In this document: piece by piece, positions 14,084 to 63,641 of the stretch
Position numbering within the stretch: the stretch's first letter is position 1
Layout: each line of letters begins with the position of its first letter
Assembly: GCF_019097595.1 (NCBI RefSeq)
Contig: NC_080714.1
Location: forward strand, 5,446,259 to 5,510,258
Reading direction: 5' to 3'
Length of the DNA: 64,000 nucleotides
From: Hemibagrus wyckioides
Lineage: Eukaryota > Chordata > Actinopteri > Siluriformes > Bagridae
Translations under genes and position numbers: made by a program
Notes under the pieces: model-generated
Databases searched by the model: none
What the model was told of the DNA's origin: nothing
The model's input: the letters and a program-made list of their open reading frames with translations, nothing else

Positions 14084-14175
14084 CTAATCTTTAAAGTGTT
14101 GAGTAAGGAACTGGAGCGAGGCCACAGGACCAACAAGTTCAAACTTCTCCACAAACGCTTGAGGATCCCAGTTTC
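14084..14175 (-). CDS. pebp4: pebp4 terminal coding exon
   Basis: This exon encodes the last 30 residues of a PEBP4-type protein. The acceptor reads GTTTTTTTCCACTCTTTAG followed by GA, which completes a Gly codon started by the previous exon. The peptide begins GNWDPQAFVEKF, contains ASLQFLTQ and ends HFKD before a TAG stop. It aligns residue for residue with the human PEBP4 segment GSWKMDRFLNRF...STQFMTQNYQD as I recall it. Human PEBP4 continues about 25 residues past this point in a basic tail; here the stop comes directly after the core. Codon choice looks coding (GTG, GCC, CTC, CAG). Assignment to PEBP4 also fits the egr3 neighbourhood. I recall PEBP4 as a secreted/lysosomal PEBP-fold protein linked to ERK/AKT signalling, which is family knowledge, not seen here. 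Confidence 0.9.
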
Positions 14176-15168
14176 CTAAAGAGTGGAAAAAAACAACAAC
14201 ACACAAATATAATAAACACAATTTCCTTTTTATCATTTATTATGGTAATCCTGACAGATACAAACAATTAAGCATTGCCCTGTGTAGGTGTCACTTGACT
14301 TTGTGAATCCATCAGGATGGAGTGATGGAGCTTCTGGATAGTGATTTTTCCACTGTATTTTTTTTGGACTGTATCTATGCAGAAGGTTCTTAACTAGTCA
14401 CCTTTTTTTATCTGAAGTCATTTACATTTAAGACCCAATCCACTGACCTAGTGTTTCTGTAACATGATGCTTCTGGTGCTGTCACCATATTTGGAACAGA
14501 ATTTCTGGCGGTGAAAGGAGGCGAAAGACTCATCTTACTTCGGAATACAACTATGACAAAGCTGATAAAATAGATTATGATCTTTATGTACTTCCCCAGA
14601 ACTGCTCATTCCATTTAAACTTACAGACATGCCAAATCTGTGTTTTCTTGATCTATATTTATCTCACGCACAACCCCTCACACTGCTCTGGAGAGTCTCA
14701 AGGCTTTTAAAAGCATAGAAACCTAGAGGCTATCCATGTCTGGCTGGGCGTGAGAAGAGGAGGAGGAAAATAAAAAAAATGTCAGTGTAGACATGGTTGA
14801 TATTACAACTAGCAAACTAAGTAGCAAACTAACTTACTAACTTGATTAAACTTTCAAATGGTAGCTAATTGCTAAGATAAACTTCCTTAGTTCATCAGAT
14901 AACGTATCCCTACGTAAATACTGGCGTTTAATATAAGCACCAAGTCACACTGTGTCAACAACTGACTAACCAAACTAGCCTTGTGTCATAATCACAATTA
15001 TATACATACAAAGACTAGTACCGATAGACTAGACTAGACTGACCTGTTTTCACTTTTCATTTAGTGGTTTAATTATAAAAACCTCTCATGTCGCCTTCAG
15101 TCTACCTACCTGGTCTGTTTTGCTTATTTTCTAGATCAGTAAATAAATTCTGAATATATGGCCACGGT

Positions 15169-15247
15169 GAACTTGTGCCCCTCCTGTCACTCCGACCGTC
15201 TGGCCGGAAGCTGTGAGGGTATTTCAGTTGTAGTTTCGTTGTGGGTT
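15169..15247 (+). repeat. 83-bp repeat T, copy 2
   Basis: Same-orientation partner of 13241..13323, with small indels (for example GGACC versus CGACC) and a few substitutions. Confidence 0.8.
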
Positions 15248-18200
15248 TTCAAATTAAGACAAAGCACATGACAGCAATCACGATGATGGCGGAACATTTT
15301 AAAGAGAAACGGTGGTTTATTACTAGTGCAGAACTTTAACTGCTCCTCTGAGAGAGCCCACCTCTTTTGCTAACCTGATACTGGCCTGATTCAGTGACCG
15401 AATGTTCTTTACATGCCTAATGCTAAATGCTAATATACTTAATTGAAAGACAGAGCTTTGTATGTTTCTCTGATTTGTAATTGGGGGGTGTCACTGTGAT
15501 TGTCTGGGCCCTGAAACACTTATATACTAAAATAAATGCTCAGGCTGTTGTGGTGGCAACAGGAGAATGAGAGATTTTTGGCAGGACAAGTGGGTAAATA
15601 CCAGTCGTAGCTCCGGCTGCTATGACAATATCTTATCCTGATCGTTCCTCTGAGCTAATGACTAACTGCACACACACACAATCACATTTGGAACTAACAA
15701 GTTCCAAAAAGCTGTATTCCCTCCATTTGTTTATGCAGAAGCCAGAAAGACATCGCTTACAATATGAGCTAAATCTTTATTTCTAAGTTCTGAGTGAAAT
15801 ATTTGTAGAGTGAAAGTGATTAGCCTTTAACTGCTAACAGAAAATGCTAAGCAGTGGCATGTAATCAAATTTCCCCCTCAAACAGAACAAAGAAAAAGAG
15901 GGAACAAAATAGATGACCGATTTAGAAGTGGTTAAATCTCGATGTCAGTTCCATTCACTGACTTGATCTGTGTCTCCAACACACATGAAACACAGATCAG
16001 TGGCGGAAATGCAGCAGTGGTGAAAAGGGAAAGCCCGTCGTTGTACACACAGAACAACATGCCACATCCTGGAACTATCTGAATCTGTATGTGTGTGTGT
16101 GTAGTCGCCTGTATATGTTTGCATGCAAATACGTGTGGGAGAGTGTAAAAATATGACCCGAAAAGAAAAAAAGAAAAAAATAGAAAGAAATAAAAAGGTC
16201 ATGTTCACCCACAGAGAGGCAGGCCAGTATTAATATAGCGACTGTCACAATTCTTGTTGCTCTAACCAGTACAATTACCATCTCATAGCCTCCCATTAGA
16301 GGTGAGCAAGAGCAGAGATGTGACAAAGTGAAGGGCACAGGTGGTGTTTAGACGAAAATAATAAGCACAGACTAGGTCCTGCTTTTCGCTCAATTATGAG
16401 ATGCTGGGAGTCAGGTAAGTCTGTGAGAACAGTGTGTCCAGTTCTCTGGTGATTAAGTGTGAGAGATGGAGTAAGGGGACCTGGCATTATGAGGTCAGGT
16501 GACCTTTGGGCCTTCAGGTCTGAGAACAAGGGGAGATAATGTTCCGCCTCTGCACATACCTAGCCCCATCTGACCCTACCATGGTCGGGGCACCACACAC
16601 ACACACACATACACACAACCACACACACCCTTATCTGACCACCACTAGAGATTAACAGATGTAAGGCAGTGTCATGGTGGAACCTTCTAGATCCAATGAA
16701 TGTCAAGTGACGTCTTTTATCCACTGTCTTAAGTTTAAGAACACAGAAGTAGCTAGTTGAAGTTTTTGGGACCTACTTGTACTGTATAGCTGTTATGTAA
16801 TATATGTCTGTTGAATAAAGTTGATCGAGTCATGGAACTGGTTCACTACACACATCTTATTTTAATACTAACAAATCATTTTGAAATTGTAATCATTAGT
16901 GGGTCACATGACCATATCATGTATGTAGGCTAATCCTGAGTTAGGAACTTTTAATTTCGTTATTATTTTATAGTTAAAACTATTCGGTTTGGTCATAGGA
17001 GAGAATACAAAAAAGACTAGAGAAAAACCATAAAACCTTGTTTATCCCACTCAATAGAGTGGAATTGTTTCCAATATAACATAAACTGTGTTACCCCCCC
17101 ATGTCTCTATATAAAACCGATCTTGTCCAAATATGGAATACGTTTGACAGAAAAAATCTCCAGCGACTTTAGCTAGATTTTTCAACCCAAGAGCAATGAC
17201 CCCAGAAACATTCCAGTAGCTCTTGTGATACACAATCAATTTGTCAGGACATAACTATGCATGGGTTACATCAGCTAAACACACAGCTAAAGCTGATGTT
17301 GACAGGGTGGAGTGACTTCAAAAAGCTTTCATGCTATTCACATACATGACGTTACCTATTTTCTGCCTTCTTTTAAACACACTATTCCGCACACATTCAT
17401 CAACCTAGTCGGTAAACGTCCAGTCAAGCTTAACAATTATCTAAATAATACTATTGTTGGCCTAAGACCAATAACTTTAGTGATCCGACTCATAATGATA
17501 CCGTACAAAATATGTACCGTAGATAGGAACTAAGAGTTCATAACTTGTTCAGCATTCAAAATAACTTTGAAAGAAAGCCACATCATGTACTGTGAGGTTT
17601 GACTGGAAAACAATAATCTTGCTTTCACTTTTTGCACTCTTTGTCTGATTGGCTGGTGACAACTCTATTGTCAGTGACCACAGTAGCTCTAATTCTGTCA
17701 TCATGGAGCTAACTGGGCAGAGTGGCGGATTTACTAACATACAGATTTACACACGGTTCCAAAAATAGTGTCGGCAGTTTGTGTTTGGGCTAATTTCAGC
17801 ACGCACAGACGCACACTTTCCACTTCCCCGATCTGTCGAGTCATGGAACAGTGAGAGATAGGAAGTGAGGAGCTCTGTGGTGATTTCTTCCTCTCTTCTC
17901 AGCCCGCTTCACCCCTCCCCCTTTTGACAGGTTTGAGCAGTGCAGGAAGTGAAAGAGATGTCTGCCCTGAAGATACTTTTTGTACTATGATGTGGTTCAA
18001 TAGGTTTACCGTTCAAGTGGCTGTGTAGCATTTAAGACATACAACAATCAGCCAAACCAACTGCCTAATATTGTGTAGGTGCTTATGCCACAAAAGCATG
18101 ATCTGTCGAGGCATGGATGCCACAATATCTTTGATGGTATCTTACACCGAAACTTTATCAGCAGATTGTGTAAGGTCCCTTTAATAACCTTCACTCCCCA

Positions 18201-62821: not shown

Positions 62822-63435
62822 CAAAAAAGGACAGGTGAGGAGGTCTGGGGTGCAGTCAGTGTTCCAGTTCATCCCAAAGGTGTTAAGTCAGAGTCAGGGC
62901 TCTGTACAGCAGGGGTCCCCAACTTATTTTGTACCATGGACCATTTTACTGCAGACTGGGGAGCGGCAGGGGGCTGGGGACATTTGTTTTAGGGTCATTT
63001 TAGCATGGGTTAGCTTGCGGGCTTACTGATGTATGGAAGAACCAGCGGCAGAGTCAAATGCGGGAGTGTGGCGCGGTTAGAAGTGGCAATTTTTCAAAAT
63101 AAGTTCATTGATTCTTTGCGGCCCGGTACCAAATGATCCATGACCCGATACTGGTCTGCGGCCCGGTGGTTGCCGACCCCTTCTGTACAGGACACTTACC
63201 ACTGCATCCTGAACACACCATGTCTTCATGGAGCTTGTTTCGTACACAGGGGCATTGTCATGCTATAACATGTTTTGGCCTCTTAGTTCCAGTGAAGGGA
63301 AATTGTACTGCTACAGCATAAAAGACTTGAGATTCTAGATAATTATGTGCCTTCAAATTTTTGGGGAAGAACCACATATGGGTGTGATGGCCATGTGTCC
63401 ACTGACCTACATTTTGGCCATGTGTCATATTTACC
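62822..63435 (+). mobile_element. Tc1-derived MITE carrying a hAT insertion
   Basis: Left part 62822-62909 (GTGTTCCAGTTCATCCCAAAGG...CAGGGCTCTGTACAG) and right part 63183-63435 (ACACCATGTCTTCATGGAGC, CAGGGGCATTGTCATGC, TTAGTTCCAGTGAAGGGAAA, ACCACATATGGGTGTGATGG). The right part matches 42360-42538. Its outer terminal repeats are decayed. Confidence 0.8.
62910..63182. mobile_element. 273-bp hAT-type MITE
   Basis: It starts CAGGGGTCCCCAAC and ends GTTGCCGACCCCTT (inverted, decayed end). It is bounded by the 8-bp target duplication CTGTACAG at 62902-62909 and 63183-63190. The GCGGCCCGGTACCAAATGATCC and GGTCTGCGGCCCGG words are typical of this family. No coding capacity. Confidence 0.9.
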
Positions 63436-63542
63436 TCAGCAATCGGGAGCTTTTTGTTGCTTTTATATTAAATGTTTGTGCATGGTCACTGTGCTGCCAT
63501 GAAACATGTCCATAGACAGACTGGTTATTTTTTCTTACTTAC

Positions 63543-63641
63543 TTCAATATCAGCCAGCAGCCAGTGCCTCCAGTTGGCTCGAGAAGGGTTAGTACGGCTG
63601 GGGGCATCAGGGTCCACCATTATCAACGTGTATTTCTTCTT
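63543..63641 (-). CDS. pebp4: pebp4 exon with the PEBP signature DPDAPSR
   Basis: 33 codons: KKKYTLIMVDPDAPSRTNPS... followed by NWRHWLLADIE. YTLxMVDPDAPSR is the central PEBP-family signature that lines the anion/phospholipid-binding pocket, and WRHWL matches human PEBP4 (FWRHWLVTDIK). The acceptor is (CT)n-ATTCTTGCAG and the donor is GAA|GTAAGTAAG. Both phases fit the downstream 46-nt exon. It is the most upstream exon visible; the signal peptide and N-terminal Cys-containing part of PEBP4 must lie past 64000. The joined partial protein is 117 residues, with DPDAPSR at 10-16 and HRY at 62-64. Confidence 0.96.

What the first reader, a model, noticed from the sequence alone, without database searches (positions are those of the whole stretch)
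14084..63641. Four hidden pebp4 exons span what looks like a 50-kb gene desert
Seen: exons of 99, 46, 117 and 92 nt on the minus strand, each with good splice sites, join in phases 0, 1 and 1 to one open 117-residue C-terminal part carrying DPDAPSR, GFHRYQF and a stop. Known: these are PEBP-family signatures, and PEBP4 neighbours EGR3 in mammals. Inference: the whole 14-64 kb region is a transcribed gene, so everything in it is intronic rather than intergenic.
Basis: partly seen in the sequence, partly recalled or inferred. Interest (0 to 1): 0.75.

Follow-up and report, generated by a model that had tools for sequence, protein, structure and literature searches.

The report
Ordinary catfish pebp4 gene, 3' half
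The four exons are real and form the last 117 amino acids of a catfish PEBP4 protein that is already in public databases, so the apparent gene desert is just the long introns of an ordinary, known gene next to egr3.

Summary
Four minus-strand exons (63641-63543, 28892-28847, 28678-28562, 14175-14084; 99, 46, 117, 92 nt), each preceded by AG and the first three followed by GT, join in phases 0/1/1 to a 117-residue open C-terminus with stop. The peptide is a PEBP domain (PF01161, E 1.1e-16). It is 100% identical to residues 82-198 of the 198-aa "phosphatidylethanolamine-binding protein 4" of the catfish Hemibagrus wyckioides (E 4.7e-73). No trace of residues 1-81 was found on this strand, so the 5' exons should lie beyond 64000. 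EGR3 lies downstream on the same strand, matching a PEBP4/EGR3 block in print for teleosts and human chromosome 8 (PMC3890633, one passage). So 14.1-63.6 kb is best read as pebp4 introns with transposon remnants and satellites; transcription was not tested. "Hidden" is wrong: the protein is already annotated. Sound but ordinary. Minor leftovers: three of 65 database proteins skip exactly the 99-nt DPDAPSR exon, and two weak candidate alternative 3' exons.

The parts
63543..63641 (-). pebp4 coding exon, 99 nt, phase 0-0, KKKYTLIMVDPDAPSRTNPSRANWRHWLLADIE (residues 82-114 of the 198-aa protein); holds DPDAPSR
   Evidence: identical to P0001
28847..28892 (-). pebp4 coding exon, 46 nt, phase 0-1
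28562..28678 (-). pebp4 coding exon, 117 nt, phase 1-1, holds TGFHRYQF
14084..14175 (-). pebp4 last coding part, 92 nt with TAG stop
14007..14018 (-). ATTAAA and AGTAAA polyadenylation-like hexamers starting at 14018 and 14012, 66 and 72 nt after the stop; possible 3' end (inference)
   Evidence: pattern match only; AATAAA at 13475 and ATTAAA at 12961 also match
28893..63542 (-). pebp4 intron, 34,650 nt, phase 0; holds Tc1-like transposon remnants and a satellite
   Evidence: boundaries; contents
28679..28846 (-). pebp4 intron, 168 nt, phase 1
14176..28561 (-). pebp4 intron, 14,386 nt, phase 1
5133..5288 (-). egr3 exon 1 coding part, 52/52 residues identical to Clarias EGR3
720..1856 (-). egr3 exon 2 coding part with three C2H2 zinc fingers (counted by eye); 93% identical to Clarias gariepinus EGR3; upstream limit approximate

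Best explanation
This is the 3' part of an ordinary single-domain pebp4 gene of a bagrid catfish, most likely Hemibagrus wyckioides. It is transcribed on the minus strand toward egr3. Two long introns (34.7 and 14.4 kb) and a short one (168 nt) separate four coding exons, and splicing would yield residues 82-198 of a 198-aa PEBP4. The upstream exons, with a hydrophobic signal-peptide-like N-terminus, should lie beyond base 64000. Shown here: exon structure, identity to a database PEBP4, and synteny with egr3. Inferred: transcription and splicing, secretion, and ligand binding through the conserved PEBP pocket.
For: Exact exon structure. PF01161 at 61.9 bits against a cut-off of 24. PEBP1 crystal structures match from residue 2 to 108-110, with DPDAPSR, W-x-H and TG-x-HRY aligned. 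100% identity to H. wyckioides PEBP4 over 117/117 and 91% to Tachysurus fulvidraco. tblastn recovers the four exons. No 5-residue word of residues 1-81 occurs on the minus strand of the window (two chance words on the plus strand). Full-length PEBP4 of other fishes, reptiles, a frog and a marsupial aligns across all four exon-encoded segments. EGR3 is next door on the same strand. A paper lists EGR3, BIN3, RHOBTB2, BMP1 and PEBP4 in one block on human chromosome 8 with a conserved locus in teleosts (PMC3890633, passage).
Against: No RNA data were available. The upstream exons were not seen, because the genome search did not complete. The species rests on the identity of one 117-residue peptide; other Hemibagrus species were not compared. 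No PEBP1 appeared among the hits, but that search scored only 66 candidates sharing short words, so its silence on distant paralogues is weak evidence; no tree was built.
Confidence: 0.98

Rival explanations
1. The exons belong to another PEBP-family gene (PEBP1-like) or to a decayed pebp4 copy.
For: PEBP1 structures match at E about 1e-19.
Against: 54 of the 65 hits are named PEBP4, from 100% identity downward (261 bits, against 72.4 for the best PEBP1 structure); the frame is intact across four exons with intact splice sites; egr3 synteny.
Confidence: 0.01
2. The locus also uses alternative 3' ends or exon skipping: a terminal exon at 37992-37852 (46 codons and a stop) or near 57223-57021, or skipping of the 99-nt exon, giving PEBP4 forms without a complete ligand pocket.
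For: Tachysurus fulvidraco isoform X4 (P0064) and a Tachysurus ichikawai model (P0065) run from the 99-nt exon into tails that match the window at 38010-37870 (81%) and 57223-57021 (84% and 87% in two pieces). The window has a CT-rich tract and CAG before 37992 and an open frame to a stop. Three of 65 database proteins (P0033, P0046, P0053; Tachysurus, Pygocentrus, Electrophorus) lack exactly the 33 residues of the 99-nt exon.
Against: All are database entries of which I saw no reads; the 'X' labels suggest predicted models (recalled convention). The P0065-like tail is split between two frames in the window. The search with the P0064 tail found 2 proteins, one being P0064 itself. The other, P0066, from an unnamed 2,950-base contig, reads straight through the supposed splice site and matches the window over the whole stretch 38340-37774, where the window has 3 stops; conservation is therefore not confined to the exon.
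Confidence: 0.1

Closest known systems
Phosphatidylethanolamine-binding protein 4 (PEBP4), Hemibagrus wyckioides, 198 aa (P0001)
   Same: 100% identical over all 117 residues encoded in the window
   Different: nothing in the part seen; residues 1-81 were not found in the window
PEBP4 of Tachysurus fulvidraco (P0002, P0033, P0064)
   Same: 91% identical over 117 residues (P0002); aligns over all four segments
   Different: its isoforms X3 (99-nt exon skipped) and X4 (alternative tail) are not shown to exist here
PEBP1 (solved structures such as 2iqy, 1beh)
   Same: PEBP family; DPDAPSR and TGLHRY-type motifs aligned
   Different: 72.4 bits at best against 261 for the H. wyckioides PEBP4; PEBP1 lacks a signal peptide (recalled)

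Membership tests
PEBP family (PF01161) | whole-protein score above Pfam's gathering cut-off | tested here: met
   61.9 bits against 24, profile positions 27-116 of 135
PEBP family (PF01161) | conserved ligand-pocket motifs (DPDxP, xHRY) | tested here: met
   DPDAPSR and TGFHRYQF aligned to PEBP1 structures; the meaning of the motifs is recalled
PEBP4 orthologue | closest to named PEBP4 proteins rather than to other PEBPs | tested here: met
   54 of 65 hits named PEBP4, 100% to H. wyckioides; no tree was built and distant paralogues were not sampled
PEBP4 orthologue | position next to EGR3 | tested here: met
   EGR3 at 5288-720 on the same strand; block in PMC3890633; orientation in mammals is recalled
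PEBP4 orthologue | N-terminal signal peptide | not testable with these tools
   those exons were not found in the window; the database protein P0001 starts MLFRAFIVLALACTLSTCQ, signal-like by eye
Transcribed, spliced gene | spliced reads across the junctions | not testable with these tools
   no RNA reads available

The most novel reading that the evidence does not exclude
Pebp4 of catfishes and their relatives makes, besides the normal protein, forms without half of the ligand pocket, by in-frame skipping of the phase 0-0 99-nt DPDAPSR exon or by early termination at exons inside the 34.7-kb intron; these could act as non-binding secreted variants.
Probability: 0.08. Interest if true: 0.3.

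Novelty: already known. Interest (0 to 1): 0.07.

Why it matters
Mainly as annotation: it shows that four short exons can be read correctly from raw sequence across 50 kb, and that the apparent empty space beside egr3 in this catfish is intronic, so any egr3 regulatory elements there would sit inside pebp4. There is no new biology in the gene itself.

Tried and rejected
Rfam scan of the window at gathering thresholds: no hits. Nested genes: all 34 stop-to-stop ORFs of at least 110 aa from 14084 to 63641 (of 45 listed) were scanned against Pfam (1, 10, 8, 8, 7). Only the Tc1-like ORF passed curated cut-offs. Four others gave matches with E up to 0.01, all below the cut-off and mostly on low-complexity or satellite stretches (28446-28886, 33487-33891, 43859-44233, 43891-44247). 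Of the 11 ORFs below 14 kb only EGR3 was scanned. NCBIfam gave only a sub-threshold match to a bacterial-type PEBP subfamily (28.4 bits, cut-off 57.75). Candidate alternative terminal exons were examined and judged weak. CT microsatellites: a run of (CT)6 or longer lies within 40 nt upstream of 3 of 4 acceptors, against 9 of 106 (8.5%) acceptor-like sites on that strand, a set that was not cleared of the true ones; noted, not pursued. Paper searches: PEBP4 with 'exon skipping', 0 papers; PEBP4 with zebrafish, 21 papers, 20 listed, none of those with either term in the title; PEBP4 with EGR3, 15 papers, 12 listed; PEBP4 with its full name and 'secreted', 32 papers, 10 listed; Hemibagrus wyckioides with 'genome assembly', 24 papers, 8 listed. 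In these I saw titles and starts of abstracts only. PMC3890633 and PMC8546334 were seen in passages only.

Full report
Observation. Reading the minus strand at the stated coordinates gives exons 63641-63543 (99 nt), 28892-28847 (46), 28678-28562 (117) and 14175-14084 (92 including TAG). Acceptors end CAG/TAG/TAG/TAG and donors are GTAAGT, GTGAGT and GTAAGT. The joined frame is open for 117 residues, with intron phases 0, 1 and 1.

Identity. The peptide matches Pfam PF01161 (E 1.1e-16) and PEBP1 crystal structures (best E 3.2e-19). Against the large protein set it returns 65 proteins out of 66 candidates. The best is PEBP4 of Hemibagrus wyckioides, at 100% identity over all 117 residues (E 4.7e-73); other catfishes, characins, cyprinids, a bowfin, a gar, reptiles, frogs and mammals are among the rest. 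By the listing, 54 of the 65 are named PEBP4. tblastn of the 198-aa catfish protein back to the window finds the four exons, and no 5-residue word of residues 1-81 occurs on the minus strand, so that N-terminus should be encoded beyond base 64000. The window is therefore most likely H. wyckioides. A published chromosome-level assembly exists (PMC8546334; passages seen: 22,794 predicted genes, DNA transposons 19.09% of the genome).

Neighbourhood. EGR3 follows on the same strand: exon 1 coding part at 5288-5133 (52/52 identical to Clarias EGR3) and exon 2 from about 1856 to the stop at 720 (93% identical). The block EGR3, BIN3, RHOBTB2, BMP1, PEBP4 and others is in print for human chromosome 8 and a conserved teleost locus (PMC3890633, one passage). 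The gap between the EGR3 start codon and the PEBP4 stop is about 8.8 kb. ATTAAA and AGTAAA hexamers lie 66 and 72 nt past the PEBP4 stop.

What fills the introns. The 34.7-kb intron holds a Tc1-like transposase ORF (42621-43556; PF01498). Window self-comparison shows related stretches at 19426-20346 and 36134-36801, and there is a 32-bp satellite at about 33.5-34.7 kb with other simple repeats. No Rfam family reached threshold. All 34 ORFs of at least 110 aa in the interval were scanned against Pfam, and apart from the transposase none reached a curated cut-off. This does not exclude nested genes with short exons.

Possible isoforms. Three of 65 database proteins (P0033, P0053, P0046; from Tachysurus, Electrophorus and Pygocentrus) lack exactly the 33 residues of the 99-nt exon, which is phase 0-0 and carries DPDAPSR (in the alignment one residue of P0046 is placed in that stretch, none). 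Skipping would keep frame and remove part of the ligand pocket. Four more proteins lack the stretch or have unrelated letters there (P0054, P0056, P0058, P0059), but they also lack the N-terminal part, so I do not count them; P0030 and P0034 merely begin inside it. Two Tachysurus models leave PEBP4 after this exon into other tails that match the window at 38010-37870 and 57223-57021. The first has an acceptor-like site and a 46-codon open tail in the window. But P0066, which reads through the site, aligns well beyond the supposed exon, so conservation there is not exon-specific. The second is frame-broken in the window. I regard both as weak.

Mechanism. PEBP4 is a small PEBP-family protein, called secreted in two abstracts and cytoplasmic in another (starts of abstracts in the listing: PMC9478609 and PMC9304715 say secreted, PMC10933182 says basic cytoplasmic). 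The catfish protein keeps the pocket motifs and has a signal-like N-terminus by eye. Its biochemical role in fish is inferred only.

Verdict. The finding is correct and ordinary: a known, annotated gene with long introns. Not shown: transcription, the upstream exons (genome search did not complete), and the species beyond the protein identity.

Noticed in passing
63642-63690, 28893-28960, 28679-28720 (minus strand): Three of the four pebp4 acceptors have a long CT microsatellite just upstream, against 9 of 106 acceptor-like sites on that strand; length changes of such repeats could affect splicing.
   Followed up: partly
63543-63641: Database proteins from three fishes (3 of 65) skip exactly this phase 0-0 exon, losing DPDAPSR.
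   Followed up: partly
37852-37992 (minus strand): Candidate alternative terminal exon matching the tail of Tachysurus PEBP4 isoform X4; conservation extends beyond it, so weak.
   Followed up: partly
42621-43556 (minus strand), with relatives at 19426-20346 and 36134-36801: Tc1-like transposase ORF of 311 aa and degenerate related stretches in the introns.
   Followed up: partly
33506-34670: A 32-bp satellite (about 35 copies) that is open in several frames, mimicking coding sequence.
   Followed up: no
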